From Nilaparvata lugens (taxonomy: Eukaryota > Arthropoda > Insecta > Hemiptera > Delphacidae), in NCBI RefSeq assembly GCF_014356525.2, contig NC_052518.1:98219932-98283931 (forward strand): a stretch of DNA of 64,000 nucleotides, given 5' to 3'. A program made the translations under genes and the position numbers. Positions 4,556-60,624 of this stretch are shown piece after piece. How positions within the stretch are numbered: position 1 is the stretch's first letter; each line of letters starts with the position of its first letter. The notes beneath the pieces were generated by a model. It was not told the origin of the DNA. It did no database searches and saw only the letters and a program-made list of their open reading frames with translations.

Positions 4556-4691
4556 TGAAATAAGTAAACTCTTCATTTGTAGAGCTTTAATCAAATAAAA
4601 TTGAACATGACTTTCTACTAGTAACGGATCAACAACATTTGATATTTATGAATGAATCAATGACAACGAAAACATATGGTTTATCATATCA
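4556..4691 (-). repeat. 3' LTR of the compact Ty3/gypsy element
   Basis: 136 bp, identical along its whole length to 8183-8318 by eye. Its first three bases in element orientation (TGA, plus-strand 4689-4691) are the stop codon of the polyprotein, so the coding frame runs right up to the LTR. Confidence 0.95.
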
Positions 4692-7600
4692 TTCTACCCG
4701 GCTAGATTTTCGTGTTATCTTAGGGGCAAGATGACGGAGCGACACAGTGGACTCTTGTCCATCAGGGCGACGAATGTGAGCATACTCTGGGTTTGCCTCA
4801 ATCAATTCAACTTCTTCTACTGATGAATCTTGCTTTGAATTTCGGTTCATTTTCTTCAGCCAAACTGGTCCTGGGCTCATTAGCCAAGATGGTAGTGACT
4901 GTCCATTTGTTGAGGATCTCATGTGTAGGAACATTCGTTCATGAGGGGTGCAATTTGTTGTAGTACACAAAAGAGATCGAATAGAGTGAAGTGCATCAGG
5001 CAACACTTCCTCCCATCGATTTGAATCAAGTCCTCGTGATCTTAGAGCTAGTGTTATTGCTTTCCATATAATTCCATTATATCGCTCTACTTGACCATTC
5101 CCTCTCGGATTGTAAGGCGTTGATCTACTAGTTGCTATCCCTTTTGAGCCAAGAAAGCTCTTCAACTCAGTTGACATGAAGGATGTTCCTCTGTCTGTGT
5201 GAATATAGCTTGGAAGGCCAAACATTGATATTAATGAGACCAGGCAATTTATGACTGTTCTCGCAGTCATGTCTGGACAAGGAAATACAAAAGGGAATCT
5301 TGAGTACTCATCAACCATCACCAGTAGGTATTTATTTCTTGTTTTTGATTGTACGGGTCCTTTGAAGTCCATATTAATTCGTTCAAAAGGTTTTGTTGCC
5401 TTTATGAGATTTCCTTTTGTCTTCATATACTGTGGTTTTATTTCAGAGCAAATTGCACAATTGGAGCAAATTTTCCTTACATCATCTACAGTATAGGGGA
5501 GATTTTTCATTCTGAGCCAGTGGTAGAAACGAGTTACACCAGGGTGACAAAGTTCATCATGGTATTTTGCCAAAGCTGAGTTCAATGTTGAACAACCAGC
5601 TGTAATACATATACGAGAGAGTGCATCAGCTGGTGCATTTTCTTTTCCAGGTCTGTAGACTATGTTGAATTTGTATTCAGATAATTCTAGGCGCCACCTT
5701 TGTATCTTTTCATTTTTTATTTTTCTATTGTGTTGAGTGCCATACATGAATGTGACTGATTTTTGGTCAGTGATCAAAGTGAATTGTTTTCGTAGTAAAT
5801 AGTGTCTCCATTTTCTTATAGACTCCACAATGGCATAGGCTTCTTTCTCAACAGCTGAATGCCTGGTTTCACTTTGGGACAAAGTTCGTGAGAAAAAGGC
5901 TACTGGTCGAGAATTTTGTGTTAATGTTGCACCAATTGCAAAATCTGATGCATCTGTCTCAATTATGAATGGTACATTTTCATCAACAAAGAGCAGTACC
6001 GCGGAAGCAATTTCATTTTTCAACAATTCCAAAGTTTCCATCTGATCTTGAGATAGAGGGAATTTCTGTATGTGGACAAGGGGGTGAATCTTTTGAGAAA
6101 AGTTTTTAATCCATCGGGAGTAATGAGCCAGTAATCCCATGAGTCGTTTCATTTCTTTAGCATTTCTTGGGGGTGGAAAGTTCATGAGTGGTGCAAGGCG
6201 TTCTGGGTCAGGTTTAATTTCTCCATGTTTTATCTCATACCCAAGGAACTTCAATGATTTTTTTGAAAATTTACATTTTTCTTCATTTATAGTCAAGCCA
6301 TAGAATTCAATTACTTGTTGAAATTTCTTAAGATTTCTGTCATGTTCTTCTTGATCTGAACCGCAAATGACAACATCATCCAAATAGGCAAAGCAGTCGT
6401 TCAAATTCTCTCTTTCTATAAGTCCGTTTATTGTACGTTGGAAGGCAGCTACTCCATTGGTTACTCCGAATGGTATTCGTTTGAACTGATAAAGTTTTCG
6501 GCCTACTTCAAAGGCAGTGTAATGTCGTTCATTCTCAAGAATCGGTATTTGATGGTAAGCTGACTTGAAATCTACAGTACTAAAAAAGTTGTACTTGGCA
6601 ATTGTGTTTACAAGATCTTCGATCAATGGGAGAGGGTATGCGTCTAAATTTGTGAATTTATTAATAGTCTGTGAATAGTCTATGACCATTCGTTTCTTCT
6701 GTCCATTGGTTACAATGAAAGGCTGGGCACGCCAACTGGACTGGCTTTCCTCAATTATTCCTTCTGTAAGGAGGCGATTGACCTCATTCTTCATGAATTC
6801 ATAGTCATCTTGTGGGTGTCTTCTGGATCGGGTAGTTATTGGGTGGCAATCGGGAGTCAAGTCATTGAAAAGGGAACATGGTTTTATCATGGCCTCCACC
6901 AAGAGGCAATCTTTCAAGGGTGGTGTGGTTGTAGAATTATTATCTATTACAAGAGGCTGTTTATTACCATTGAATGCTAAACTTATTGTAGAGTGATTCA
7001 TCAAAAAATCGTGACCAAGTATCACATTGCAACAGCATTCTTTTAATACCAAGAGTTTAATATTGTTGTATTCATTTCCTTTGTACACAATATTGCTATA
7101 AACACTTGCTTTTGTAGCGGTGTTATGTTGAACAGATGCAAATCTTATAAAACAAGAATCTGATGCAGTTTTAAATTTATTTGTTTTTGCAAATTTTTCA
7201 TCAATAAAACTGGCAACACTTCCGGTATCAATAAGAGCTGGTGTATTTATTCCATTCACCGAAACAATAATTGTAGCTTTAGAAAGATTACTGGCTATAC
7301 CAGCTGCAGTAATAGTTGACGTAGTTAGTTTTTCTTTGAGCGTTTTACTTTTACACACATGGGAAAAGTGTCCAATTCGGGAACATTTATGACAAGTCTT
7401 TCCTATTGCAGGACATTCTTGAGAATTTGAGTGTTTTTTATATCCGCAACGTTGGCATTGAACGGATTTCTCTACAATTGCCTGTCGATTTTGGGTTACA
7501 GCATTAACATCTGAGAAAGATTCACTCAAGCTTATGATTTTATTTTCTTCAACAGAGTTTGTATAACAAGTACTTTTAAAGGAGTCGGCATATGTTTTTG

Positions 7601-7970
7601 CGGATTCAAGAACACGTGCTTGGGAAACGGTTTCTTGTAGACTCAAATCTCCTTGTTGAAAAAGTTTCTCTTTAATTTCAATAGAACATAACCCTGAAAC
7701 AAGAGCATCTCTAATATGCTCGTTTTTGTTTTCATCGGCTGACACTCTAGTGAAGTTACATGATAAGCTTAATCTTTTTAGTTCAGAATAGTAGTGATCA
7801 ATGGACTCACCTATTTGTTGTTTTGCATTAGCAAGGCAGTATCGTGCATAAATTTCGTTCTTCGGTTTAACGAACATATCTTCCAACATGGATATAGTTT
7901 CTTCATATGAAGTATAGCTTTCCACAATTTCGTATAAAGCAGGTGATAAGAAGTTTACCAATATTTTCAT
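4689..7970 (-). CDS. Ty3/gypsy Gag-Pol polyprotein (main open part)
   Basis: A 1093-codon frame from an ATG at 7970. Domain order by approximate residue: Gag-like helical region (1-170); CCHC-type zinc knuckles CQRCGYKKHSNSQEC and CHKCSRIGHFSHVC (~173-210); retropepsin ALIDTGSVASF (~245); RT with VDFKSAYHQ and YLDD (~420-560); RNase H starting TDASDFAIGATL (~665); integrase HHCC finger CSNCAIC and a D,D-35-E core (DFKG, HTDRGTSF, GQVERYNG). All catalytic motifs look intact. The ATG at 7970 is probably internal: the true N-terminus starts at 8167 in another frame, broken by a dinucleotide indel. The frame ends on the TGA formed by the first bases of the LTR. Confidence 0.93.
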   Translation of the reverse strand: MKILVNFLSPALYEIVESYTSYEETISMLEDMFVKPKNEIYARYCLANAKQQIGESIDHYYSELKRLSLSCNFTRVSADENKNEHIRDALVSGLCSIEIKEKLFQQGDLSLQETVSQARVLESAKTYADSFKSTCYTNSVEENKIISLSESFSDVNAVTQNRQAIVEKSVQCQRCGYKKHSNSQECPAIGKTCHKCSRIGHFSHVCKSKTLKEKLTTSTITAAGIASNLSKATIIVSVNGINTPALIDTGSVASFIDEKFAKTNKFKTASDSCFIRFASVQHNTATKASVYSNIVYKGNEYNNIKLLVLKECCCNVILGHDFLMNHSTISLAFNGNKQPLVIDNNSTTTPPLKDCLLVEAMIKPCSLFNDLTPDCHPITTRSRRHPQDDYEFMKNEVNRLLTEGIIEESQSSWRAQPFIVTNGQKKRMVIDYSQTINKFTNLDAYPLPLIEDLVNTIAKYNFFSTVDFKSAYHQIPILENERHYTAFEVGRKLYQFKRIPFGVTNGVAAFQRTINGLIERENLNDCFAYLDDVVICGSDQEEHDRNLKKFQQVIEFYGLTINEEKCKFSKKSLKFLGYEIKHGEIKPDPERLAPLMNFPPPRNAKEMKRLMGLLAHYSRWIKNFSQKIHPLVHIQKFPLSQDQMETLELLKNEIASAVLLFVDENVPFIIETDASDFAIGATLTQNSRPVAFFSRTLSQSETRHSAVEKEAYAIVESIRKWRHYLLRKQFTLITDQKSVTFMYGTQHNRKIKNEKIQRWRLELSEYKFNIVYRPGKENAPADALSRICITAGCSTLNSALAKYHDELCHPGVTRFYHWLRMKNLPYTVDDVRKICSNCAICSEIKPQYMKTKGNLIKATKPFERINMDFKGPVQSKTRNKYLLVMVDEYSRFPFVFPCPDMTARTVINCLVSLISMFGLPSYIHTDRGTSFMSTELKSFLGSKGIATSRSTPYNPRGNGQVERYNGIIWKAITLALRSRGLDSNRWEEVLPDALHSIRSLLCTTTNCTPHERMFLHMRSSTNGQSLPSWLMSPGPVWLKKMNRNSKQDSSVEEVELIEANPEYAHIRRPDGQESTVSLRHLAPKITRKSSRVE

Positions 7971-33960: not shown

Positions 33961-34728
33961 ATCTATGTACCACCTACTCACCTAATAATTCCAGTTAATT
34001 TATTGAATCATTTTCTGTACCCAGGAACAATGCCCTAGAATATTGGTAAGGAGTTCGGAAACATTCTGTATATAAAAGCGAAATTGCACTGATTCATTCG
34101 CTCAATCACTCACTCTGATTCATAAATCAACAGAACTGAGAATCTACTGACCAAATACGTTCAGATGTAACCTTTGAGGGTTCCTTCTTACGAATTTTCA
34201 AATAACTTTTACAGTAGTTCTTCTAGAATTTTCAAGAAGATTGAAACTTGAAAGGGTGAAATGGATGTTTTGTAATCTCTGTACAATATTTGTTTTTTTT
34301 CTTACACATTTTTTAAAAATAAGCTACATAATTAATATCAACGTTTTCGAGAACTGATGTAGGCCTATGGAAAATGTTCATATTCGGTACAGAGGCTCAG
34401 CTACAGTCTAAACATTTGTTTATAGAAAGAGCTTCATAAGTTCGCCACCGATAAGATAAAAAATTGGAATTCTCCTGCGTGGTGTCAGTCAACTGGTGAT
34501 TGAATAGTCTCGACTAATTACGGGATTGTATTTGACTATTTGACTTGAGGAAGCAAGCTTAAATGAAGAATGCTGGCTGGTGGTGTTTAGAGCTTCTATG
34601 GTTATACAGTAGATCAAAATTACTCTATTTTGATTGAATTCACTAATCGTAGCTGTGAGCTCAAAGAGCTTTACCAAGCAACATCTGCTCAATTTCTGAC
34701 AAATGATTGAATTTTGTTCAATTTGCAG

Positions 34729-34897
34729 GTGTGGCAAATGCGCCGCAGCCCGTGATGGGATAACATTTTCCAAAATTACACAGCTACCGGAGGTACTGTG
34801 TATAAACCTCAAGAGGTTCCTGCCGGACTCGAAAAAAAAACTCAACAGGTTTCATTCCCGATCACTGAACTCGACATGACACCTTTTGTTCATTCTG
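34729..34897 (+). CDS. USP20/33-like ubiquitin hydrolase, exon with C-x-x-C and LKRF, frameshifted
   Basis: After ATTTGCAG it reads CGKCAAARDGITFSKITQLP then EVLCINLKRFLPDSKKK. The second CxxC pair of the USP zinc site and LP-x-(V/I)LC-x-(H/N)LKRF are classic USP features. At an A9 run (34832-34840) the frame is lost; downstream bases in another frame read VSFPITELDMTPFVHS, the expected continuation. A one-base length error in the homopolymer would explain this. Ends TCTG/GTAATT in phase 1 of the second frame. Either a pseudogene lesion or an assembly/sequencing error. Confidence 0.85.
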
Positions 34898-35347
34898 GTA
34901 ATTATTCTCTCTCCTTGTCTAGAAACTGATTGAATTTTCATGTGATTTCTACAACATTCCATTATTTCCAGTTTTGTCATTGACAATATGATGTTGGACA
35001 TAGTCAAATAGATGAAGCCAATCAATGACGAAATTCCACTTAATGAATGCCTGTAGTACAGAATGTGATTGCTTTTGAATAATTTGTTTATTACTTTCAA
35101 ACTTTAATGAATCCGTCAATTTCCAATTAACAAGTGTCTCAATTGGCATTTCTCAATTATGTTGGTTAAATCAAAAATGTTTTGAGTTGAATTTTGATAT
35201 GTATTTGCTTTAGTTGTTTCGGAGTTAATCTATGTGAAATAACTGAGCAAGGAAAGAGCTCCAAGACAATGCATCATTCGATTATTGTAAGGCATTATTC
35301 GATTAAGGTGAGGTATTGCAAGGTAACATGTTTGACTTGTTTTTCAG

Positions 35348-35571
35348 AATGCCAGTCGGAGGTTAAAACGTACCACCTTATGGCAGCTATATGCCACAAA
35401 GGCGAAAACTTGAATAGTGGACATTACATCTGCTATGCACTAAATGACGCAGAAAAGATCTGGTACGAATTGGATGACGACCATGTGACCAAAGTCACAG
35501 ATGAAAATGTTTCTTCATGTGAAGCATACCTATTAAGCATATGGAAGCATAGCTGCCATAAAAGTGTCTAA
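35348..35571 (+). CDS. USP20/33-like ubiquitin hydrolase, His-box exon ending in a stop
   Basis: Begins after TTTTTCAG; a split codon restores Glu, then CQSEVKTYHLMAAICHKGEN and LNSGHYICYALNDAEKIWYE then LDDDHVTKV. SGHY is the catalytic His box and the DD of the WYELDDDHV region the acidic member of the triad. The frame ends CEAYLLSIWKHSCHKSV and TAA at 35569-35571. USP20/33 proteins normally continue to DUSP domains, and a DUSP exon does lie downstream (36065-36310), so the stop is unexpected. No clean GT donor in the right phase was found before the stop. Confidence 0.88.
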
Positions 35572-37529: not shown

Positions 37530-37850
37530 TGTGAAGTTTTCTTGTTCCTCGAGAATTATTGAAGAGTCTCGTTTTTATTATTTTGATTACAATTGAATGT
37601 TAATTCATTATTTTACATAGTATGAACTCATAATACAAAGCATTCCTCTTCTGTCAACTCTCCCCTATGTTTTCCCTTTTGAACATAATTATTATTTTTT
37701 TAAAGTGAATACTCTCAGTAATATAACTTTATTACAATCAAGTGAAAAATCTGAAACTGTTGAAATGCCACACTCATTCCTTACAGCTTATACAATAATA
37801 TATTGTTTCAGTGTTTCAATAATTTGAAAACTCTTATATTGAAATTCTGA
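37530..37850 (+). repeat. Segmental duplication, copy 2
   Basis: Second copy of the 36771-37090 segment (GTGAAGTTTTCTTGTTCCTC, TCATTCCTTACAGCTTATAC), ending about 60 bp before the large LTR element. Confidence 0.85.
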
Positions 37851-37909
37851 GTAGATTTTTGCCCACACCTTCTTCTACTAGAATTCCCAGTGTCGCTCTG
37901 GGCCGGCAA

Positions 37910-39735
37910 GACTCAGTCGGCGTCTGGGGTGGGCCGCAGAAGGGGCAGGAGTCTTGGTGGGGTGTCCGCCAACCGCCCTCGTTCGAGTCGGGGGTTGAAA
38001 CAGGGCCTTGAGCACTTTAGAGAAATGTTTCCCTCTTTTAGGTAAGAGGGGCCGTGCTCTCGCACTGCCAAACAGGGTTGGGCGTGGAGTGAGAGGAGTA
38101 GGTATGCTGCGGTGTCCGCAGTGAAGGAGGTCTCTGTGACGGGAATAACGTTCCCGATTGCCACAATGTGTCCTCTTGTGTGTCTTAGATCTACTAACTG
38201 GAGTCGCTCACCGGGTCACTATTCTCGGGAACCAGGTGTTTTCCGGGTCTCCGGATTGAATTCGGGGTTCTCGCAAAGGCTTTCTCTAGCCTCTCTCGAG
38301 CTCCTCTTGCGATTCCGGATTGAATCGACAAGCTGCGGGAGCCCGCGCGTCGGACTTCCCTAAGTCCAAGTCCACGGGCACCAGGTGTCTTCCTGGGGCC
38401 CGGATCGTCCTCGGAGTTCTCGCAAAGGCTTTCCCTAGCCTTTCCCGAGGTCCTCTTGAGATTCCGGATGGTATCGGCAAGCTGCGGGAGCCCGCGCACC
38501 GGACTTCTCTAAGTCCTAGTCTTCGGGCACCGGGTGTCTTCCTGGGGTCCGGATCGACCTCGGAGCTCTCGCAAAGTCTCTCCCTATCCTTTCTTGAGGT
38601 CCTCTTGCGATTCCGGATGGTATCGGCAAGCTGCGGGAGCCCGCGCACCGGACTTCTCTCCTGATCACTAAGTCCAAGTCCTCGGGCACCGAGTGTCTTC
38701 CTGGGGTCCGGATCGGTCTCGGAGTTCTCGCAAAGGCTTTCCCTAGCCTTTCTTGAGGTCCTCTTGCGATTCCAGATGGTATCGGCAAGCTGCAGGAGCC
38801 CGAGCACCGGACTTCTCTAAGTCCTAGTCTTCGGGCACCGGGTGTCTTCCTGGGGTCCGGATCGACCTCGAAGCTCTCGCAAAGGCACTCCCTAGCCTTT
38901 CTTGAGGTCCTCTTGTGATTCCGGATGATATCGGCAAGCTGCGGGAGCCCGCACACCAGACTTCTCTCCTGAGCACCAAGTCCAAGTCCTCGGGCACCGG
39001 GCGTCCTCCTGGGGCCCGGATCGATCTCGGAGTTCTCGCAAAGTCTCTCCCTAGCCTTTCTTGAGGTCCTCTTGCGATTCCGGATGGTATCGGCAAGCTG
39101 CGGGAGCCCGCGCACCAGACTTCTCTTCTGAACACTAAGTCCAAGTCCTCGAGCACCGGGTACCTTCCTGAGGTTCAGATCGAAGTCGGGGTTGTCGAAA
39201 AGGCTTTTCCTAGCCTATCTCGAGGTCCTCTTGCGTTTCGAGGTTCTGGCGATGATGTACCAAGATGTCAGGTTTTGACCAAAACCTGACGTGTCGCTGC
39301 TGGTTGTAACAGGCAGGTTGATGCCCAAACTTGTTGAAAAAGTCAAACAACACTTGTCCAAGTGTGTGTTGAACTGCGGAGCTTCCAGTGTCTGAGATTA
39401 ACCACCTTTAACCTCAGACACAACTCCCGGTCGTCAAAGGATTCGGAGTACACTCAAAGTACGAGTTGTACTATGCTGCTAGCTGCGCGCTGCTTCCTTC
39501 ACTCTTCTATCGACTGCTCGCACTGGACACCCGAACTAGACTGCCGCCTACTAGCCTTTCACGAGCCTCCCTCAGTGGCCGAGAGGGAGGGGAGTAAGGA
39601 TGCGCAGCACTGCTGAGCGGTAGCCCAGCGGCTGCCTTGCTTGTTGACCTCTGTGATTCCATCAGAGATAACCGAGCGTCTTATAATGAGCCCTAAACTC
39701 AATTCCCTTCATTAGTTACGATATACATCATGACA
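37910..39735 (-). repeat. 3' LTR of the large element (1826 bp, seven tandem units)
   Basis: Matches 49904-51133 at both ends with about 1-2% difference by eye, but is 596 bp longer because of extra tandem units. It begins (minus) TGTCATGATGTATATCGTAA and ends at GACTGAGTC. It contains GGGCCGTGCT-x-TCGCACTGCC, the founder motif of the internal minisatellite. Confidence 0.88.
38241..39180 (-). repeat. LTR tandem array, 149/159-bp unit, seven copies
   Basis: The block TCTTCCTGGGGTCCGGATCG or variants recurs with CCTGGGG-type positions 38241, 38392, 38541, 38700, 38849, 39008 and 39168, i.e. spacings 151, 149, 159, 149, 159, 160. The 10-bp difference is a CCTGATCACT-like insert present in alternate units. 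The other LTR has only three units (about 50236, 50387, 50546). All reading frames through it are chance frames. Confidence 0.9.
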
Positions 39736-39984: not shown

Positions 39985-41400
39985 GATATCGAAGAACTGC
40001 GCCGTGCGCCGTGCTTTCACACTGCAAAGGGGATGCTGTGCTTTCAAGCTGCAAGAGTCGCCGTGCTTCTGCACTGTCAAAGGACGCCGTGCTTCCGCAC
40101 TGCAGGTGAGAATCGCAGTGCTTCCGCACTGCAAGGAGACGCCGTGCTTCCACACTGAAGATGAGAATCACGGTGCTTCCGCACTGCAAGGAGATGCCGT
40201 GCTTTCGCACTGCAAAGGGGACGCCATGCTTTCGCACTGCAAGAGTTGCCGTGCTTCCGCACTGCAGGTGAGAATCGCGGTGCTTCTGCACTGCAAGGAG
40301 ACGCCGTACTTTCGCAATGCCAAAGGACGCTGTGTTTCCGCACTGCAGGTGAGAGTTGCAGTGCTTCCGCACTGCAAGGAGACGCCGTGCTTTCGCACTG
40401 CAAAGGGGACGCCGTGCGTTTTTACTGCAAGAGTCGCCGTGCTTCTTCCGCACTGCCAAAGGACGCCGTGCTTCCGCACTGCAGGTGAGAGTCGCGGTGC
40501 ATCCGCACTGCAAGGAGACGCCATGCTTTTGCACTGCAAAGGGGACGCCGTGCTTTTGCACTGCAAGAGTCGCCATGCTTTCAAACTGCAAGAGTCGCCA
40601 TGCTTCCGCACTGCAGGTGAGAATCGCAGTGCTTCCGCACTGCAAGGAGACGCCGTGCTTTCGCACTGCAAAGGGGACGCCGTGATTTGCACTGCAAGAG
40701 TTGCCGTGCTTCCGCACTACCAAAGGACGCCGTGCTTCCGCACTGCAGGTGAGAGTGGCGGTGCATCCGCACTGCAAGGAGACGCCATGCTTTTGCACTG
40801 CAAAGGGGACGCCGTGCTTTTGCACTGCAAGAGTCGCCATGCTTTCGAACTGCAAGAGTCGCCATGCTTCCGCACTGCAGGTGAGAATCGCAGTGCTTCC
40901 GCACTGCAAGGAGACGCCATGCTTTCGCACTGCAAAGGGGACTCCGTGCTTTTGCACTGCAAGAGTTGCCGTGCTTCCGCACTACCAAAGGACGCCGTGC
41001 TTCCACACTGTCAGTGAGAGTCGTGGTGCTTCCGCACTGCATGGAGACGCCATGCTTTTGCACTGCAAAGGGGACGCCATGCTTTCGCACTGCAAAGGGG
41101 ACGCCGTGCTTTTGCACTGGAAGAGTCGTCGTGCTTCCGCACTGCAGGTAAGAATCGCGGTGCTTCCGCACTGCAGGTGAGAATCGCGGTGCTTCCGCAC
41201 TGCAAGGAGATGCCGTGCTTTCGCACTGCAAAGGGGACACCTTGCTTTCGCACTACAAGAGTTGCCGTGCTTCCGCACTGCATGTGAGAGTCATGGTTGC
41301 TATACCCTTAAACTAAAAGGAACGCCGTGCTTCCCCAATGCAAGAATCGCTGTGCTTCCGCACTGCTAAAGGACGCCGTGCTTCCACACTGCAGGATAGA
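39985..41400. repeat. Minisatellite of GTGC-NNNN-GCAC mini-palindromes
   Basis: Dozens of copies of (G/A)TGCTT(C/T)CGCACTGCA separated by a few spacer types (AGGTGAGAATCGC, AAGGAGACGCC, AAAGGGGACGCC, AAGAGTCGCC, CCAAAGGACGCC), period 26-31 bp. A higher-order repeat of ~264 bp is visible: GTGAGAGTCGCGGTG at 40485 recurs near 40749 and 41014. Each unit can form a 4-bp stem. The repeat lacks stops in several frames on both strands, producing spurious long open frames. The same motif occurs once in each LTR. Confidence 0.93.
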
Positions 41401-41659
41401 AGGGTAACACAGAACACAGAAACACATAAAACATAAAAGGTGAACAGCACTTCCGACTGGCTCTGAGAGCTTGAGTCGCGCAGTGTGTACACGCCCACTG
41501 ACTTGCCGGGAAAGTGGCCCCTGCTTTTACACTAGGAAACAGAGCTCATGCTCTGCTGGAGGGCTGTGTTTGCACACAGCAAGGCACAAGGATTTTCGCC
41601 TCATCTGGACAAGCCATGCTCGCGCACTGCAGGATAAAGGTAACACAGAACAAAAAGCC

Positions 41660-42215
41660 GGGCTTTCACCCTGCATGCCGTGCTTGCGCACTGCGTGCCA
41701 TGCTTGCACACTGCGTGCCATGCTTGCGCACTGCGTGCCGTGTTTTCACACTGCCGCGGTGTTTCCACACCACGAAGGTGTGTGTCCGCATAATGACAAT
41801 CCAGACACACACTGACCGATGTGTCATGTTTGCACACAACGATGGACGAGCTAGCAATCTGGCTGCAGTGTTCCCACACTGCTGTGGTCAAGCTCGCGCA
41901 GTACCTTTTCTGGGCTTTTGCCCTGCATGCCGTGCTTGCGCACTGCATGCCGGGCTTGCGCCCTGTGCGGCCGTGCTTGCACAACTGCCTAACCTCACCG
42001 TGCTTGCGCACTGCATTTGCCGGGGCTTGCGACCTGCGCGGCCGTGCTTGCGCAACTGCCTAACTTCGATGTGCTTGCGCACTGCATTTGCCGGGCTTGC
42101 ACCCTGCGCGGCCGTGCTTGCGCAACTGCCTAACTTCGCTGTGCTTGCGCACTGCATTTGCCGGGCTTGCGCCCTGCGCGGCCGTGCTTGAGCAACTGCC
42201 TAACTTCACTGTGGG
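41660..42215. repeat. Second minisatellite block, ~70-bp unit
   Basis: Variants of GTGCTTGCGCACTGC. From about 41927 a ~70-bp unit (GTGCTTGCGCACTGCATTTG, CCGGGCTTGCGCCCTGCGCG, GCCGTGCTTGCGCAACTGCC) repeats about four times (42000, 42071, 42141). It is a diverged sister array of the preceding block. Confidence 0.88.
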
Positions 42216-42543: not shown

Positions 42544-43426
42544 TCAGGAGGTCTGTGTGGTCCGGCAGAGGCTGCTCCCCAAGCTGAATCCAGCATGGGG
42601 TGGGGAGAGTCGGGGTTGCCAGCCTTTCAAAAAAATTTTTGAATTTTTTTGAATTTTTGTCAAGGTGCAGGGAGGAGTTGTGGGTTGCACAACCTCCTCT
42701 GGAGTTCCATATGCCGGGGAAAGGGAGAAGTTGCCTCCTCCTCCTTCCAGCAGGGCATCCTCGTCCTCCGTAGGGACTTCTGGTATCTCCATCAGTGGGC
42801 TGGCGGCAGAAGAGGTCAAGAGGAGATGAACCTCGGCTCGGTCTGAGCCAGCAGGGGTCTTGGAAGAAGACAGACCCCCCGTGACCACTACAATGCGGTC
42901 GCATCCCGTTCGCAGAGTGGGGAGGACCTCGAACAATTCACTTGAGGCAGCTTCCACCAAGGTATCCACAGGAGGGGTTCGTCGTTGAAGGAGCCGGAGA
43001 AGCTGCTGTCCAATAATCCTCTCAGCTTTCCAGTGGGTCAGGCCTTCTCGGACGTGTTGAAAACACTGAACGTCCCATCCCTGGACGTGTTGCAGTCTTT
43101 TCACTTGGCAAAAGTCTTTTTGCCATGACGGCGTGGACTGCATCATAGTCCTCAGTGGTGGTCCTGTGTCCCGGGTCAAGGATGGTGGTGAGTGCTTCCT
43201 TCCGATTCACTACGGCGAGAGCGATGCCTCCTCGCCGAATCAGTGGAAAACCAAGGAGGGTGTCGCTCCTCAAATTTTTTAATACTTCCCGAAGTCCTTC
43301 CAGGGAGCAACCCGCATGCCGAGTGCGTAGAGCCTGGAATGGTGAAAGCCTTCCTTTCTCGGTCAAGGACAGCCGCTCCATCTCACGAAGCACCTGGTTG
43401 GTGAATGAGGTGCGGAAAGATGGCAT
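42544..43426 (-). CDS. ORF3 of the large LTR element, unknown function, frameshifted
   Basis: From 43426 the minus strand reads MPSFRTSFTNQVLREMERLS and GFPLIRRGGIALAVVNRKEA. At an A5 run near 43125 the open frame switches (43022-43426 to 42544-43179) and continues KDFCQVKRLQHVQGWDVQCF, EVLPTLRTGCDRIVVVTGGL and an acidic PEVPTEDEDALLEGGG stretch, about 300 codons combined. No signal peptide, membrane helix, zinc knuckle or env motif is visible and I do not recognise the protein. Its place downstream of integrase is where accessory or env-like genes sit. Coding nature is likely but unproven. Confidence 0.5.
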
Positions 43427-45064: not shown

Positions 45065-48000
45065 TTACTGATGTTGAATTACCCTTCCTCGGTACTCCAT
45101 CAGCCGAGTGGGCAGCGTCACCCAGCTTATGTGATTCCTCCTGTCGTCACTGTCCTCCTCTGCACTGGCTCCTCCATCGTTGCCCTCTCGGCCATCGCGG
45201 CCGGCTCCTATTCCGCTGCCGTCTCCTCCATCTTCCTCCTCTTCCTCCTCGGGAAGGGGTGGCAAGATCTTTATATCTTTCACGTGAACAGTCAGCCTTT
45301 TACCGGCAGCTCCTTTTAACAACACTACAGAAACGCTCAACATTTTCTCTACCTCATAGGGCCCAGAAAATTTCGGAGCTAGCTTAGCCGCAAACTGGTT
45401 CACTCCGGATGAGAGATGATAATCCCTCTTATACACCAACTGGTCCGTCCTTAGTTCCAGCGGTCTTTGCCTAAGATTATAATACCTCCTGGTATTATTA
45501 TAGGCCTCGTTTAGGTTATCTAAAACGAGCTTCTGCGCACGCTCCAGTACTTGCAGCCTTCTCAGCTGGGCTGCTCGACTCGTGCCTCCATCCTCCTGTC
45601 GGGGATTGCCTTCCTCCTCGCAGCAAGCATCTCCTGGTGCTCTCAATTCCCTTCCGAAGTTGAGGAAAGCAGGAGTATACTTAGTACCGACGTGTACTGC
45701 TGTATTCATGGCAACACAAAATTCCTCCACATAGCGATCCCAATCTGCATGGTGCTCGCCCATATAGAGCTGTATCATAGTCTTCATGACTCTATTAACC
45801 CTCTCCGTAGGGTTACAGCTCGGTGTATAAGGTGGAGTGTAGAATAATGAGATGCCATTATCTTTACAGTATGACTTAAAAAGTCTACTTGTATACTGTG
45901 TTCCATTATCACAGATTAGCAGCTTTGGCACCCCGAATTTGGTGACAACCAGCTCTCTCAAAGCTCGCGCTACGGCATTGCTGTCTGCCTGAGCTAGCAG
46001 CCGAGCTTCCGTCCACTTCGTGAACTGGTCCTGAAATACCACCAGGTATTTATTCCCTCTCTTTGAGCGAGGTTATGGGCCTACAATGTCGGTGCTGACA
46101 GTCTCCCAGGGTCGCACCACCTTCCTCTGGCTATTCATCTGCCCGTATGGAGGCCGCTGCTCCACTTTATGCTTCATACAGGTCTTGCAGCGCCTCACAT
46201 ACTTCGCGACGTCTGCATACAAGCCTGGCCAGTAGTAGCGACAGGCTATCAGGTGATAAGTCCGGAATACTCCTTGATGGCCCGCTGTCGGTGCATCGTG
46301 GCTGTGTTGAAGTATTTCCGCCCTTGCACCTCTCAGAATACACAGCTTCCAGCCATCGCCCTCCGGCGCATCAGGAGGTTGCGGACGGGCCCATATATGT
46401 CAAAACAAAGCCTCACCCCTCACCATATAGTCGGGGTATTTCTCTGGATGATGAAGTAGATTGCTCTTCATCCTCCTTATCCATCTGTCATCTTCCATGA
46501 CGATGGCGGCCACTGCTCCTGTGGGTTCCTTCTGGACTTCCTGTGTATTGGCCAGTACGTCACCTCCTGGCAACGCTCGTGAGAGAGCATCAGGGACCAC
46601 ATTCAGCTTTCCTCGTCGGTATTTGATGACCAAGTTGTACTGCTGCATCTCTAAGGCCCACCTTGCTAGCCTTCCTGTCGGGTTGGGGATAGCTCTAAGC
46701 CACTTTAGAGCCTGGTGATCTGTGATCACTGTAGTCTCGTACCCTTCTATATATGGCTTGAATTTTCTCAGGGCGAAAATCACAGCCAGGCATTCCTTCT
46801 CGGTGGTGGAATACCTCAGTTTGGCCCCCTTGAGCCCTCTGCTTGCATAGGCGATGACCTTCTCCTCTCCATCGACCTCCTGAGTAAGCACAGATCCTAA
46901 TCCATACTCCGAGGCATCTGTCTGGAGCGTGAACGGAAGTTCGAAGTGAGGATACGTGAGCACTGGAGATCTAGTGAGGGCCCCCTTTATCTCTTGGAAA
47001 GCTCTCTCCTCTTCTGGTCCCCAGTGCCACTTCACTCCTACCTTCAACAACCGGTTTAAAGGGGTTGCAAGGTCTGAGAAATTCGGGACAAACCTCCTAT
47101 ACCAGGATGCCAATCCTAGAAAACTCCGGAGCATCCTGAGCCGCTGCGGAGTTGGGAACTTGTTCCCTCTGCTCTCACTTGTTCCCTCCGCTCTCACTGT
47201 TTCAGGATCGGTCCTGAGTCCTTGCTCTGTCACTATGTGACCCAAGTAGCATAGCTGCCGCTTCAAGAACTGGCATTTCTCCTGGTTGATTATCAAGCCA
47301 GCCTCTCTCAGCCTACTGAACACTCTAGCTAAATTTAGCATATGAGCCTCCATTGTTTCTCCCAGGACGATGACGTCATCTAGGTAAGCGAAAGCACAGG
47401 GTTTCAATTCCGGTCCAATTACCCGGTCTAGAAGACGCTGAAATGTAGCTCCAGCCGAGTGTAGACCAAACGGCATCATCTGGAATTGGAATAGCCCTCT
47501 TCCAGGAACCGTAAACGCTGTAAGCAGCTTACTCTGCTCCTCCAATGGTACTTGCCAGTACCCGCTCTTCAAGTCAATTGAAGAAATGTATTTAGTGTTC
47601 CTTAATCGATCCAAAATGCCTGTCATATTCGGCGAGAGATATGCATCTCGTTCCGTGAGTGCATTAATCTGCCGGAAATCGATACAAAATCGCATCTTCC
47701 CATTAGCCTTCTTCACCAAGACAATTGGTGAACTCCAAGGGCTACTGCTCGGCTCGATAACCCGCTGATCGAGCATACTGTCCACCTCCTCGTTTATCAC
47801 CGCTCGCATAAGTGGATTGCAAGGATACGGACGTTGTTGGAATGGCTCAGCTCCTTCCTTCAGCCTGATTTTATGAACCAGGAGGTGAGTCGCACCTGGC
47901 ACATCTCTGAATTTTTTCAGCTACGTCTCCAGGAATTTTTTGAACTCCTCCTTTTCTGAAGTAACTGCTGCCACCTGTCCCACCAAAGCCGGAGGCAATA

Positions 48001-48877
48001 TCATCCTCCACTGCCTTAGATCGAGTCTTGCTTGAATCGCTCTCAAATGACTTAATCCCAAAATCATTTCGGATTCCAACTCCTTGATCACTGCCACCCT
48101 CCAGTAGACTCGTCTACTACACACCTCGGCGGTCAGCTTCAGCTCCTCCACTATGGGAAGCTTCTCTCCAGTCACCAAAACAGGTTGATGACTAATCGGT
48201 TTAATCTGGCAATCGCCAGACCTCTTCAGTCGTTGTGCTGCCTCTCCAGAGACATAGGACAACTCTGCCCCAGTATCGACCAGTGCATTGAGCCAGACAT
48301 CTCGAACATGTACCAGCATGAAGACGCGCGTCTCCTGGGGCTGCAGACACTTTCCTTGCATGTCTATCACAGCTGCACCGAACTTCACCTCCCTTCTTCC
48401 TCTGGCTTTCACAGTTTTCTGGGTGGTTGGAGCACTCTTCTCCCTGGGTTGGGGCTCCCACTCCACAGTGCAGGTGCAGGTGTCGATTTTCACCCTGTGC
48501 TCCTGCAGGAACTGCATACCGAATAAAAATTCGGGAGATAATCCCTCCATGATCGTCATCACTGTGGATAGCACTTCTTGGCCGACTATCAGGTTGATTT
48601 CCACCTTCCCATATAACCACGCCACGGTTCCATTTGCCAAGATCGCACCTCTCTCTGTCGGAGTTCTCCTTGCACATCCAGCTGCTTCTAAGCTTGCAAA
48701 CGTTGCCAAGCTTAAGTAGTTGGATTCAGCTCCTGTATCGAGTAGAGCTCGATATTGGTGGCCAGCTACCTTGACTGTGGTATACAGCCTATTGTCGAAC
48801 TGCGACTCCGGTTCAGTTGAAGCTGGTTCCTGGTTCTCACCACGGTGGCTTTGTCTGTCGTCCTCTTCAGATTTTTC
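45065..48877 (-). pseudogene. Pol of the large LTR element: two retropepsins, RT, RNase H, integrase; three in-frame stops
   Basis: One continuous frame (-1 relative to gag) from just after a TGA at 48878-48880. Domains: first retropepsin ALLDTGAESNYLS (~48755); second retropepsin ALVDTGAELSYVSGEAAQRL (~48275); RT VLVKKANGKMRFCIDFRQIN and FAYLDDVIVLG; RNase H TLQTDASEYGLGSVL; integrase finger, CDNGTQYTSRLFKSY and CNPTERVNRVMKT; GPY/F (KFSGPYEVEKM); acidic tail. Stops in the same frame: TAG 47921-47923 (protease/RT), TGA 46400-46402 (after RNase H), TAA 46073-46075 (integrase N-part). Otherwise undamaged, so decay is recent or suppression possible. A 21-bp tandem duplication near 47160-47195 adds residues after RT. 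Confidence 0.92.
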
Positions 48878-49830
48878 TCATAAGTGCAACTGGGACGAGG
48901 CTTCCCACAGGTCGCGCAGAGAGAAACCTCAGGGCACTCTGACCTCCAGTGACCCGCCTTCTTGCACTGCCAGCACACAGGTCCCACTGGAGTCGACTCC
49001 ACTAGTCGTTGAGTTGTTGTAGGCTCTGGCTCAGGGCGCGATTTCACAGGTTTACGAATCTCCTCCTGTTTCACAGCCCGCTGCCTCTGCTGAGCGCTTT
49101 TCTCCTCCGACTTTATCCTCTCATACTGCCTGGCCAGCTTGAGCAGATCGTCCACCGAATAGACTTCGGCTTCTCTGATGTACAGCTTGTACCGAGGTAG
49201 GAGATTCTTGTAGAGCCTCTGCAGCTGGTGGCTGACTGAGAAATCTCCTCTCCTCCTCATGAGGGTCTGAAGTTCCTCCATGTAGTCGTGGATGGCCTTG
49301 CCTTCACGCTGCCGTTGACCCAGGATTTGAGTATCCAGGTCATCCTCGTAGGTTGCTGGATAATAACGAGACCGAAAGTCCCTTACAAAATCGTTCCAAT
49401 GATGCCAGAACCCTTTCCGGATCCGCATCCATAAGGAACATCTTCCCGCTAGCATTTCTGGAAGCGCCGGGAACAACTGCTCCCCTGTCAGCCCATAGGC
49501 TTGTTGTAACTCCTCAAGGCACTCTAGGAAACTAGGAGCGTCTCCATTGCCATCATATGACAACCTCCATCCCCGAACTTTATCACACACCGTCCCTGGG
49601 TCCATAAATGGAGTGTCAGGGGCTGCAGCTTGGATCGGTGAGCGTGGTGTGTGTCGGGGCCTGTACTGGTGAGCAGATGACACCTCTGGTCTCACTAATG
49701 CAGGTCTTGCATGATACAGTGGACCAGTATCTGCATGTGCCGGCATTGACCTCGGCAGCGCTGGTTGTATCACAGCCTCTTCACCTGGAGGCAGCGGTAG
49801 CATTGTGAGACATCGCTGCCGCTGCTCCAT
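48766..49830 (-). CDS. Gag of the large LTR element
   Basis: The open frame extends upstream into the LTR, but the first ATG is at 49830 (MEQRQRCLTMLPLPPGEE), 74 bp inside the LTR boundary, so that is the likelier start (354 codons). The central region SYDGNGDAPSFLECLEELQQ, WHHWNDFVRDFRSRYYPATY and LQTLMRRRGDFSVSHQLQRL is a Ty3/gypsy Gag capsid-like fold; CWQCKKAGHWRSECPEVSLC is a CCHC zinc knuckle with a following CATC. The stop is TAG at 48766-48768. Pol overlaps it in the -1 frame, implying programmed frameshifting; GAGAAAAATC at the start of the overlap is a candidate slip site but not a perfect heptamer. Confidence 0.88.
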   Translation of the reverse strand: MEQRQRCLTMLPLPPGEEAVIQPALPRSMPAHADTGPLYHARPALVRPEVSSAHQYRPRHTPRSPIQAAAPDTPFMDPGTVCDKVRGWRLSYDGNGDAPSFLECLEELQQAYGLTGEQLFPALPEMLAGRCSLWMRIRKGFWHHWNDFVRDFRSRYYPATYEDDLDTQILGQRQREGKAIHDYMEELQTLMRRRGDFSVSHQLQRLYKNLLPRYKLYIREAEVYSVDDLLKLARQYERIKSEEKSAQQRQRAVKQEEIRKPVKSRPEPEPTTTQRLVESTPVGPVCWQCKKAGHWRSECPEVSLCATCGKPRPSCTYEKNLKRTTDKATVVRTRNQLQLNRSRSSTIGCIPQSR

Positions 49831-49903
49831 TAACGCTCTCCGCAACTCGGAACAGGTGCCGTCTGTGGGCACCGAGTCCAGGAGCAAATCGACAGCGTCA
49901 AGC

Positions 49904-51133
49904 GACTCAGTCGGCGTCTGGGGTGGGCCGCAGCAGGGGACAGGAGTCTTGGTGGGGTATCCGCCAACCGCCCTCGTTTGAGTCGGGGGTTGAAACAGGG
50001 CCTTGAGCACTTTAGAGAAATGTTTCCCTCTTTTAGGTAAGAGGGGCCGTGCTTTCGCACTGCCAAACAGGGTTGGGCGTGGAGTGAGAGGAGTAGGTAT
50101 GCTGCAGTGTCCGCAGTGAAGGAGGTCTCTGTGACGGGAATAACATTCCCGATTGCCACAATGTGTCCTCTTGTGTGTCTTGGATCTACTAACTGGAGTC
50201 GCTCACCGGGTCACTATTCTCGGGAACCGGGTGTTTTCCGGGTCTCCGGATTGAACTCGGGGTTCTCGCAAAGGATTTCTCTAGCCTCTCTCGAGCTCCT
50301 CTTGCGATTCCGGATTGAATCGACAAGCTGCGGGAGCCCGCGCATCGGACTTCCCTAAGTCCTAGTCCTCGGGCACCGGGTGTCTTCCTGGGGTCCGGAT
50401 CGGTCTCGGAGTTCTCGCAAAGGCTTTCCCTAGCCTTTCTTGAGGTCCTCTTGCGATTCCAGATGGTATCGGCAAGCTGCGGGAGCCCGTGCACCGGACT
50501 TCTCTCCTGAACACTAAGTCCAAGTCCTCAAGCACCAGGTGTCTTCCTGGGGCCCGGATCGTCCTCGGAGTTCTCGCAAAGGCTTTCCCTAGCCTTTCCC
50601 GAGGTCCTCTTGCGATTCTGGATGGTATCGGCAAGCTGCGGGAGCCCGCGGCTACCAAGATGTAGTCAGGTTTTGACCAAAACCTGACGTGTCGCTGCTG
50701 GTTGTAACAGGCAGGTTGATGCCCAAACTCGTTGAAAAAGTCAAACAACACTCGTCCAAGTGTGTGTTGAACTGCGGAGCTTCCAGTGTCTGAGATTAAC
50801 CACCTTTAACCTCAGACACAACTCCCGGTCATCGAAGGATTCATAGTACACTCAAAGTACAAGTTGTACTATGCTGCTAGCTGCGTGCTGCTTCCTTCAC
50901 TCTTCTATCGACCGCTCGCACTGGACACCCGAACTAGACTGCCGCCTACTAGCCTTTCACGAGCCTCCCTCAGTGGCCGAGAGGGAGGGGAGTAAGGATG
51001 CGCAGCACTGCTGAGCGGTAGCCCAGCGGCTGGCTTGCTCGTTGACCTCTGTGATTCCATCAGAGATAACCGAGCGTCTTATAACAAGCCCTAAACTCAA
51101 TTCCCTTCATTAGTTACGATATACATCGTGACA
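49904..51133 (-). repeat. 5' LTR of the large element (1230 bp, three tandem units)
   Basis: Starts (minus) TGTCACGATGTATATCGTAA and shares its sequence with 37910-39735 except for about four missing tandem units. A GCTACCAAGATGTAGTC junction replaces part of the region near 50650. Carries the same single GGGCCGTGCTTTCGCACTGC motif. Confidence 0.88.
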
Positions 51134-54076: not shown

Positions 54077-56190
54077 AATATATATTTTATATAATACCTC
54101 CACCAATAACATCATTCAAATCATTCAAAAATAGTGTGAATAGCAACGGGGAGAGTACGCATCCCTGTTTTAATCCATTTCTGGTTTCAAAGTATTCTGT
54201 TAAGTTACCCTCCACGCCATGCAATATACAGTAGACTTCGTATTTCTATATAGACTCCTCAACATCGCAATAAATTTAGTCGACACTCCCAGTTCACTCA
54301 GTTTAAAAAATAAAGCCTCTCTGTCCACACTATCGTACGCTCCCTTGAAGTCCACAAAGAAACAGTACAACTTCTTTCTAGGTCTATTCAACGTTTTCAT
54401 TACTATATTGAATAGAACAAAAATATTATCAATAGCCGAATAATCTCTCCGAAAGCCACACTGATTCTCTTTAATAATCTTTTCTCTTTCCTCCCACAAC
54501 TGCAACCTTCTCAGTAAAATAAATGAAAATACTTTAGCAACAGCGTTTATAAAATATATGGCTCTATAATTATTCACATCATCAGTATCACCTTTTTTAT
54601 GCAATGGAAATATAATTGAATGTGAAAACCCTGCTGGTATCTGTCCACCTCTGACAATGGTATTGAAAAAAATCAAAATAATCTCTTTGTAATTTTTTGA
54701 CGCATTCTTGTAAAACTCAGCAGGAATTCTGTTATCACCTGGAGCCTTATTGTTGCGCATTGTCTTGAGGGCACTTTCCAATTCATTCATATCTATGTCT
54801 TTGTCAAGAGTTTGATCTTCAACATTCCTCGCCGCATAATATGTGACTACCTCGCCAACTGATCCAAACACTCGTCTGAAGTGTTCAACCCAATCCTCAG
54901 CACTCACAGTTCCCGAAATCTTGAACTCTCTACACTTAAATTTCTTTATCAGAGCCCACAAATCACTGGAATCCTTGACTCTTCTGAATTGTTCTTTTAT
55001 ATCGCTGTAATACGCTTGCCTTTTACTCTTACATAGCAGTTTGTATTCCTTTACTACCTTCATATAATTTTCTCTCACCTGCTCCGAATTTGATTTTCTA
55101 AACACATTCAATAGGCTGAACACTCGCTTTCTCATAACCGCACACTCTTTGTCGAACCACTTTTCCTTCCATCCTTCTCTCTTTCTATCAGGTTGGGGCA
55201 CATAATTTGCAGCTCTATATACAAGATTATTTAATACTTCATAAGTCTCCTCACTACTCTCGGGAAGACCATTTATTTCTCTACAAGCATTGGTGAGTTT
55301 AGATACATATTCATTCTTCCTCGCTTCCTTCCATTTCAACTTCGGTAAGAGTGCCAAAATTGTGCTCTCTCTTTCTAGAGTATCAACCGTGATTAGCGTA
55401 GCTTCAATTGGGAAATGATCAGATAAAAATTCTGGCACAATAGAAAATTTTCCAACCATTTGTGCCAACTCGACAGCCACGCAACATAGATCTATTACTG
55501 AAGCCCCTCTGCCTCCCATGAAAGTAAAGTCTCCCCACCTATCTCCACTTATCCTTCCATTCATAATGATCAAATTAAAAACCTCACAGAACTCCAATAT
55601 TTTCTTACCTTTCATATTAATCACCTCATCCTTTGACTCTCGCTTATTACTCAGTGCATTTCCCAATTCTATTACATCTGTTAATTCCGACAAGTCCTGT
55701 CCATTTCCTATTCTACCGTTAAAATCTCCAATTAAAATCATATTATTTCTATTATGCTCTAGCAGTATCATAAACTCCCATGCTGTATTGAATTCTCTCT
55801 CCCATTCCATATCTCCTCCACCACTCAGGTAAATTGGAACTATATATAATATTCATCCCGTTGTCCTGCATTCATGTGAATAACTTTCCTCTCATGCCCA
55901 TCGATTACCTTACAAAAACTCTCTATTCTTTTTCTAATTCCTATTAACTTTCCTCCCTTTGCTCTACCCCAGTTTGATTCTCTAACTGCGAATTCCCAGT
56001 ATGAATTGTAATCTGGAAAACAGTTTTCAAAATACAATTGCTTTCCTCTTTCAACAAGCGTCTCCAATAGTACAAAAACATCATAACCACAAATAAAATT
56101 ATATACTTGAACAATCTTACCACTTAATCGAGCCACATTGTACGCTACTATACTCAACTGTCCCTTCTCACACGGACTTACGGCGTTATC

Positions 56191-59679: not shown

Positions 59680-60615
59680 GTCTGATGGGATTCGATCATT
59701 TGCGACAAATTTCAAAACTTTTCTACCAAATGATGGGATTCGACTTTTTGCGACAAACTACAAAACTTTTTGACCTAATAGGATTCGACCATTTGCGACG
59801 AACAGCAACATTTTTCTATCAAATGGGATTCGACTGTTTGAGAATCGGTCAGATGGGAAAATCAAATTTTCGACCTTTTGCGACAGTTGAGATTTTCGGC
59901 CAAATGAGATTACTATTAAAACTTTTCGATCATTTGGGATTCGACCATTTGGGAAAGTAAAAGTTTCAATTGTATCATTTGTGATTCTTCAATTTTCGAT
60001 CTTTTGCGACAAAATAATAATTTCGACCAAATGGGAATCGGTCATTTGACATGCCACTAAACTTGAACTTTCCCAAATGGTCGAATCCCAAATGATCGAA
60101 AAGTTTTAATAGTAATCCCATTTGGCCGAAAATCTCAACTGTCGCAAAAGGTCGAAGATTTAATTTTCCCATCTGACCGATTCTCAAACAGTCCAATCCC
60201 ATTTGATAGAAAAATGTTGTAGTTCGTCGCAAATGATCGAATCTCATCGGCTAGATGGGATTCGACCATATGGGAAAGTATACTTTCGACCTTTTGGGAC
60301 TCGACTATTTGCGACAAAATACAAAACTCTTCTACCTAATAGGATTCGACCATTTGCGACAAACTACAACATTTTTCTATCAAATGGGATTTGACTGTTT
60401 GAGAATCGGTCAGATGGAAAAATCAAATCTTCGACCTTTTGCAACAGCTGAGATTTTCGGCCAAATGGGATTACTATTAAAACTTTTCGATAATTTGGGA
60501 TTCGACTATTTGGAAAGGACAAGTTTCAATTCCACCATTTGGGATTCTTCAATTTTCAATCTTTTGCGACAAAATAATAATTTCGGCCAAATGGGAATCG
60601 GTCATTTGGCATGCC
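59680..60615. repeat. Palindromic array of TTCGACCATTTGGGA-like motifs
   Basis: Dozens of variants of (A/T)TTCGA(C/T)C(A/T)TTTG(G/C)GA occur on both strands. Segment 59760-59960 is inverted at 60065-60250 and repeated directly at 60290-60490, making a ~190-bp-arm palindrome plus a third copy. Open frames run through all three segments giving GFDHLR-type peptides on either strand, a consequence of the repeat rather than proof of coding. I do not recognise the family. Confidence 0.85.
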
Positions 60616-60624
60616 ACCGTTGGT

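What the first reader, a model, noticed from the sequence alone, without database searches (positions are those of the whole stretch)
39985..42215. LTR element carries ~2.2 kb of minisatellite made of GTGC-NNNN-GCAC mini-palindromes seeded by its own LTR motif
Dozens of 26-31-bp units each contain a self-complementary GTGCTTNCGCAC core, organised into a ~264-bp higher-order repeat and a second ~70-bp block. The founder motif (GCCGTGCTTTCGCACTGCCA) occurs singly in both LTRs. An array of regularly spaced mini-hairpins between ORF3 and the 3' LTR is not a standard part of Ty3/gypsy elements. It could be an RNA packaging or export structure, an insulator-like protein-binding array, or a by-product of template switching in reverse transcription.
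Basis: partly seen in the sequence, partly recalled or inferred. Interest (0 to 1): 0.75.

Follow-up and report, generated by a model that had tools for sequence, protein, structure and literature searches.

The report
Retrotransposon array of GNRA-loop RNA hairpins
A retrotransposon in this insect-like genome carries, just before its 3' LTR, tens to well over a hundred copies of one tiny hairpin whose stem and loop are kept intact by matched changes, which points to a job done by its RNA rather than to idle repeat DNA.

Summary
The array is real (39,985-42,215) and lies between 'ORF3' and the 3' LTR of a minus-strand Ty3/gypsy element. The window copy is decayed (57 of 74 loops GNRA), and the array is not private to it: every place found by the LTR-side flank (12 places, 11 loci) lies beside one, and of 20 loci downstream of the closest pol matches 16 have one, 1 lacks it, 3 are uninformative. 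In all 29 arrays were read: 2,099 units, 1,854 GNRA. The best copies are near perfect (186/187, 130/131, 139/140). Stems change in matched pairs (C-G to U-A, U-A to G-C, G-C to A-U); in the loop N varies like the linkers, R stays a purine, the last A is nearly fixed. The same hairpin occurs once in the LTRs where it could be read. I read it as an RNA cis element under selection, most likely a multivalent protein-binding (Gag packaging) array; that function is inferred. Tandem repeats there are known in plant Retand elements; my searches found no GNRA-hairpin array.

The parts
37848..39735 (-). 3' LTR of the element (sense strand is minus), with about seven copies of a 149/159-bp tandem repeat (38224-39239)
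   Evidence: LTR-LTR BLAST and repeats; inner end by comparison with other copies
38050..38069 (-). single LTR copy of the hairpin, loop GAGA (GNRA)
40002..41398 (-). array block A: 50 hairpin units (cores 40011-41389), 132/264-bp higher-order repeat; loops GGAA/GAAA with AAAA/AGAA decay
41533..42204 (-). array block B: 24 units (cores 41542-42195), 20-bp and 70-bp periods; loops GCAA, GGGA, GCGA etc.; stems GUGC/GCAC, GUGU/ACAC, GGGC/GCCC
42544..43426 (-). 'ORF3' region: two overlapping frames, broken in this copy; no Pfam match for the 211-aa piece (the 134-aa first piece was not scanned)
45065..46042 (-). integrase core piece (rve)
46400..47902 (-). reverse transcriptase and RNase H
47921..48709 (-). 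aspartyl protease
48766..50010 (-). gag (Retrotrans_gag, CCHC knuckle); the open frame runs into the LTR because the LTR end and the stretch after it, probably with the gag start, are missing in this copy
49904..51133 (-). 5' LTR, lacking its inner end; about three copies of the 149/159-bp repeat
50045..50064 (-). single LTR copy of the hairpin, loop GAAA (GNRA)

Best explanation
A Ty3/gypsy element carries, between ORF3 and its 3' LTR, a length-variable array (16 to at least 187 units) of hairpins GC-A-GUGC-GNRA-GCAC-G-GC in its sense RNA. SHOWN: stems keep pairing by matched changes within a unit; the loop follows the GNRA rule; the same hairpin sits in the LTRs where it could be read; the array is present in 16 of 17 informative pol-linked loci, and absent from the one sampled copy of a sister family. 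INFERRED: the hairpin is selected in the genomic RNA. Most likely it is a binding site for a protein, first candidate the element's own CCHC Gag, so that the hairpin of the LTR plus the array near the 3' end give high-avidity, multivalent recognition for packaging, dimerisation or condensation. The array grows and shrinks by slippage or template switching, helped by the hairpins themselves.
For: GNRA hairpins on the sense strand only: 32 vs 0 in the window, 80 vs 0 in L011, 74 vs 0 in L012; shuffles max 3; antisense count 0 in 15 and 1 in one of the 16 arrays (not counted for the ten others). 29 arrays: 690 units/562 GNRA (13 arrays) and 1,409/1,292 (16 arrays). All eight GNRA loops occur. Fewest changes per column on trees built without the hairpin core: nine better-preserved arrays, linkers 16-38, N 33, R 17 (1 purine/pyrimidine), G 13, last A 4; L011+L012, linkers 10-28, N 24, R 13 (3), G 5, A 3. 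Matched stem changes (934 units): pair 4 CG 693, UA 231, UG 3, CA 3; pair 2 UA 833, GC 99, others 2; 990 of 1,020 Watson-Crick cells in 255 distinct units against 858 (max 881) shuffled. Tool controls: both-side changes 16 vs 5.2 in the window, 21 vs 3.3 in 75 L011 units, 0 of 500 shuffles as high in each. LTR hairpin kept while longer LTR parts diverge to about 72%.
Against: Long array pieces do not fold better than dinucleotide shuffles: z -0.14, 0.39, 0.14; block B -1.96. Predicted local stem probability is only 0.29-0.40, hardly above antisense 0.25-0.34, because units can pair with one another. In the window alone two measures are not clear of the shuffles (pairs with both sides changed 4 vs 3.1, 167 of 500 as high; further pair types 12 vs 9.0, 22 of 500), and a structure slid by one column reaches 14 both-side cells against 16, though only 11% of its cells pair; in L011 further pair types are 8 vs 7.1, 177 of 500. 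Coupled stem changes could come from hairpin-templated mutation without selection. G1 changes 13 times, not far below the least variable linker column (16). One element lost array and ORF3 together. No expression, RNA-structure or Gag-binding data; packaging is a guess.
Confidence: 0.5

Rival explanations
1. Neutral hairpin-driven minisatellite: the palindromic unit makes polymerase or reverse transcriptase slip and switch template, which expands the array and repairs stems; nothing selects it.
For: Array length varies widely (0.44-2.84 kb, at least 5.5 kb for L039); LTR repeats vary too (3 vs 7 copies); template switching is published as a source of compensatory stem changes (PMC8794818, abstract read); fold energies of long pieces are ordinary; the L021 deletion junction lies at a short shared word in a hairpin (by eye).
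Against: Stem repair does not touch the loop, yet R stays a purine and the last A stays fixed while N varies at linker rate; the sense loop is mostly GNRA in each of the 29 arrays read (56-100%; the lowest, L032, includes LTR-side false units).
Confidence: 0.15
2. Selected RNA hairpins that bind a host factor (export, stability, translation or evasion of small-RNA silencing) rather than Gag.
For: The same RNA-level evidence as the best explanation; a place next to the 3' LTR is where export and stability elements often sit (recalled).
Against: Nothing here separates host from element protein; the LTR copy of the hairpin suggests a role tied to RNA ends or replication.
Confidence: 0.22
3. Array helps reverse transcription: repeated LTR-type hairpins near the 3' end pause the enzyme or assist strand transfer.
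For: The hairpin is in the LTR as well as in the array, so it is present at both RNA ends if it lies in R.
Against: Whether the hairpin lies in R is not shown; strand transfer needs no more than terminal repeats; the GNRA rule is not required.
Confidence: 0.08
4. DNA-level protein-binding (insulator-like) array of dyad sites.
For: Perfect dyads spaced 25-29 bp.
Against: At least four stem sequences are used (GTGC, GTGT, GGGC, ATGC) while the spacer is held to GNRA on one strand; a dimeric DNA site predicts the opposite.
Confidence: 0.05

Closest known systems
Plant Retand / Tat-lineage Ty3/gypsy elements with tandem repeats between pol and 3' LTR (PMC11963269: abstract and passages read; Macas 2009 and Kejnovsky 2006 seen only in its reference list)
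   Same: Ty3/gypsy element, tandem array of family-specific, length-variable repeats between pol and 3' LTR, with an extra ORF in that region
   Different: Animal-type element; unit is a covarying GNRA hairpin shared with the LTR; that paper's main text has 0 occurrences of 'hairpin' and 'secondary structure'
Retroviral packaging signals with purine-rich loops (MMTV, PMC8096270, abstract and passages read)
   Same: Stem-loops with purine loops as Gag binding sites
   Different: One or a few loops in the 5' leader, not a 3' array of tens to hundreds; that paper has 0 occurrences of GNRA
Xist A-repeat and roX stem-loop repeats (recalled, no call)
   Same: Tandem short hairpins joined by linkers acting as multivalent protein sites
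   Different: Non-coding host RNAs with few units and other loops
gypsy su(Hw) insulator array (recalled, no call)
   Same: Repeated protein-site array in a Ty3/gypsy element
   Different: DNA sites without a dyad-loop rule, near the 5' end

Membership tests
Ty3/gypsy (Metaviridae) LTR retrotransposon | gag with CCHC, protease, RT-RNase H before integrase, flanked by LTRs | tested here: met
   Pfam hits in that order on the minus strand; LTR pair
Ty3/gypsy (Metaviridae) LTR retrotransposon | RT clade placement by tree | not tested
   only protein hits at 43-61% identity in the 120 listed of 2,789; no clade tree
Retand-like elements with pol-3' LTR tandem arrays | tandem array of at least three units between pol and 3' LTR in many copies | tested here: met
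Retand-like elements with pol-3' LTR tandem arrays | plant non-chromovirus lineage with antisense TRP28 ORF | tested here: inconclusive
   the 211-aa ORF3 piece, in gag-pol sense, has no Pfam hit; antisense frames were not scanned; pol hits with names are mostly insect
GNRA tetraloop hairpin (RNA motif) | loop G-N-R-A closed by paired stem, N free, R purine | tested here: met
GNRA tetraloop hairpin (RNA motif) | folded GNRA conformation in the transcript | not testable with these tools
   needs SHAPE/DMS or NMR
Retroviral-type packaging signal | specific binding by Gag/NC and need for encapsidation | not testable with these tools
   no binding data
Curated RNA family | match to an Rfam model | tested here: not met
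   no match at gathering scores in the window

The most novel reading that the evidence does not exclude
A retroelement RNA device of a new kind: an LTR hairpin amplified into a genetically encoded, variable-length polymer of GNRA hairpins (at least 187 in one copy) that acts as a multivalent scaffold on the genomic RNA, nucleating Gag assembly or an RNA condensate, a natural counterpart of engineered MS2-hairpin arrays.
Probability: 0.3. Interest if true: 0.88.

Novelty: new variant of a known kind. Interest (0 to 1): 0.74.

Why it matters
Tandem arrays next to the 3' LTR are usually treated as slippage debris and as seeds of satellite DNA. Here such an array shows the comparative signs of RNA structure: matched stem changes and a tetraloop rule, over about two thousand units read in one genome. 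That makes the question of what these regions do directly testable, offers a natural library of GNRA hairpins, and would, if Gag binds them, show a packaging signal that works by copy number.

Tried and rejected
Array translation in two frames found no proteins among 7,994 (E up to 0.001) and 7,995 (E up to 0.1) scored candidates; RT and a 134-aa ORF3 piece found no relatives in viral contigs; an exact two-hairpin pattern was absent from the bacterial and archaeal collection; the two viral-contig hits L001 and L002 have a single motif each and look like chance. Rfam gave nothing. The insulator idea and pure chance were rejected as argued above. G-U wobble counts in the window stems were set aside as evidence, because those sites are CpG and decay both ways. 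A pyrimidine-rich linker (73% and 71% in L011 and L012) is weaker in the nine-array set (63% before, 53% after the unit), so I do not lean on it. A possible RNA 5' end just before the LTR hairpin (homology of L005 and L013 to the window LTR begins there) is only a hint. The nine arrays (L031, L036, L037, L039-L044) were chosen, so their 911 of 934 GNRA is a best-case figure; the 16 unselected arrays give 1,292 of 1,409.

Rows dropped before counts: the reversed duplicate L015 (same DNA as L020) and clusters of 5-7 mostly non-hairpin LTR matches in L012, L015, L016, L020, L022, L023, L024; L026's cluster of 9 (1 GNRA). L032, L033 and L045 keep some LTR-side false units, which lowers their rates. 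The 14 LTR hairpins were found by a pattern that itself asks for most of the stem, and L003, L005, L006, L011 and L012 were met through the motif, so only their loops are informative (GAAA 12, GAGA 1, AAAA 1).

Full report
ANATOMY. The element lies on the minus strand: 5' LTR 49904-51133, gag with a CCHC knuckle, protease, RT-RNase H, integrase, an 'ORF3' region, the array 39985-42215, and 3' LTR 37848-39735. Its RT matches proteins that, where named, are mostly from insects (ants, Drosophila, Lygus, Ranatra among others), at 43-61% identity in the 120 listed. The window copy is broken: pol and ORF3 frames are interrupted, and compared with two other copies its 5' LTR lacks the inner end and the stretch that follows, probably with the start of gag. 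The LTRs are about 97% identical in two 300-base non-repeated parts.

THE UNIT. On the sense strand the core is GUGC-GNRA-GCAC, set in GC-A ... G-GC. Of 79 candidates 74 were kept. By a second, pairing-blind scan 57 of 74 loops are GNRA; the commonest exceptions, AAAA and AGAA, differ at the G of a CpG. Perfect 4-bp/4-nt hairpins with GNRA loops: 32 sense, 0 antisense, shuffles at most 3. Single hairpins fold well (RNA -10.6 kcal/mol sense against -9.7 antisense for the LTR copy), but long array pieces do not fold better than shuffles (block B z -1.96), and the predicted share of local stems is 0.29-0.40, since units can also pair with each other.

GENOME-WIDE. The motif GTGCTTNCGCAC has 11,873 exact matches in the 1.085-Gb assembly against 58 for the reversed-pattern control. 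Three samples of copies were read. (a) The first two array clusters in that listing, L011 and L012: 83 of 90 and 74 of 77 GNRA; these were met through the motif. (b) All 12 places within 3 mismatches of a 35-base flank next to the array on the LTR side, window included: all lie beside an array; two places (L015, L020) share one array at an inverted locus, so 11 arrays, 0.44-2.36 kb, 16-74 units. (c) Loci downstream of the top 20 RT matches other than the window and L012's element: 16 have an array of 31-187 units. Of the other four, two RT matches lie in tandem at C15:21.45 Mb: the second runs from integrase straight into the LTR, lacking ORF3 and array (seen in L026; L027 lies beyond its LTR), and what follows the first was not fetched; L030 is a contig end; L035 has about 6 kb of other sequence after RT and the fetch ends before the array position. 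So 16 of 17 informative loci. Samples together: 29 arrays, 2,099 units, 1,854 GNRA. A sister family (RT 71-76% identical) was sampled once: L046 has no hairpin array in 9.7 kb but a 57-bp, 12.8-copy repeat.

STRUCTURE CONSERVATION. In nine well-preserved arrays (934 units, chosen) pair 4 is CG 693, UA 231, UG 3, CA 3; pair 2 is UA 833, GC 99; pair 1 is GC 883, AU 30, GU 20. The tool's own controls: window both-side changes 16 against 5.2 shuffled, 0 of 500 as high; inner helix 93.1% paired; 75 of L011's units 21 against 3.3, 0 of 500. Not all measures stand out: numbers of pair types and, in the window, of changed pairs are within reach of the shuffles, and one slid version nearly equals the window's both-side count while pairing only 11% of cells. 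These cells are related by duplication, so I also counted fewest changes on trees built without the hairpin core. Pair 4 changed 25 times with 20 and 21 changes on its sides, so at least 16 were coupled. In the loop, N changes as often as linker columns (33 against 16-38), R 17 times but only once between purine and pyrimidine, G 13 and the last A 4 times; by units G is 916, R 932, A 925 of 934. Stem repair by template switching (PMC8794818, abstract read) can explain coupled stems, not the loop rule. Because the third loop base is held to a purine, an RNA GNRA loop fits better than the looser single-stranded DNA loops (recalled; one search gave no usable paper).

THE LTR COPY. The same hairpin was read in 14 LTR ends, two of them in the window: loop GAAA 12, GAGA 1, AAAA 1 (the search pattern itself asked for most of the stem, and several loci were met through the motif). 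A second possible hairpin follows it. Longer LTR parts are only about 72% alike between the window and L014, the last 300 bases 83%. Its neighbourhood shares up to 29 nt with array units. A common origin of array and LTR hairpin is well supported by the shared 20-odd bases; which came first is not.

FUNCTION. The evidence supports an RNA hairpin under selection. The protein that reads it is unknown. Gag is my first candidate because it has a CCHC knuckle, because purine-loop stem-loops are Gag sites in retroviruses (PMC8096270, abstract and passages read), and because a hairpin in the LTR repeated near the 3' end of the same RNA suits multivalent recognition. [quoted passage not shown] One deletion derivative, L021, lost most of RT, integrase and ORF3 but kept LTRs and array, as a cis element would; the element in L026 lost the array, which cuts the other way.

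PRIOR ART. [quoted passage not shown] Library searches, seen as listings only: GNRA tetraloop with retrotransposon and tandem repeat (0 papers); GNRA tetraloop with packaging signal and Gag (11, on viruses and other RNAs by title); minisatellite with retrotransposon, stem-loop, untranslated region and gypsy (0); LTR retrotransposon with minisatellite, hairpin and insect (5, none fitting by title and abstract start); four of five terms GNRA, tandem repeats, stem-loops, transposable element, packaging (2, none fitting); retrotransposon with Gag, RNA packaging, hairpin and Ty3 (9, none on such an array by title and abstract start); GNRA with LTR retrotransposon (2, none fitting). The library is open-access only.

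Noticed in passing
38224-39239 and 50206-50650: The two LTRs of one element differ in copy number of a 149/159-bp tandem repeat (about 7 against 3), although LTRs start identical: post-insertion change, unequal exchange or assembly effect.
   Followed up: partly
L046 6323-7054: A sister family (RT 71-76% identical) has a different tandem repeat, 57 bp x 12.8, downstream of RT; 57 is a multiple of three and it may be coding.
   Followed up: no
L021 4571: Deletion derivative joining the start of RT directly to the array, with a short shared word at the junction inside a hairpin (by eye); whether it is a multi-copy non-autonomous family did not complete.
   Followed up: partly
L012 and L014: The copy at about C1:36856487-36870831 sits inside the gag-pol of a related element; the alignment edges do not show a target duplication.
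   Followed up: partly
L026 and L027: Two RT matches of one family in tandem about 4.7 kb apart, the second without ORF3 and array.
   Followed up: partly
L005, L013: LTR homology starts just upstream of the LTR hairpin with unrelated sequence before it, as if the RNA 5' end or a promoter exchange point lay there.
   Followed up: no
4689-7970: A long open frame (1093 aa) on the minus strand that looks like gag-pol of a different LTR element (by eye, no family search).
   Followed up: no
54200-55810: Non-LTR-type frame on the minus strand with RVT_1 and a sub-threshold endonuclease match.
   Followed up: partly
59734-60617: Overlapping direct and inverted repeats of about 110-220 bp, foldback-like.
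   Followed up: no
34700-35570: Exon-like stretches resembling a ubiquitin-specific protease C-terminal domain (by eye, no call).
   Followed up: no
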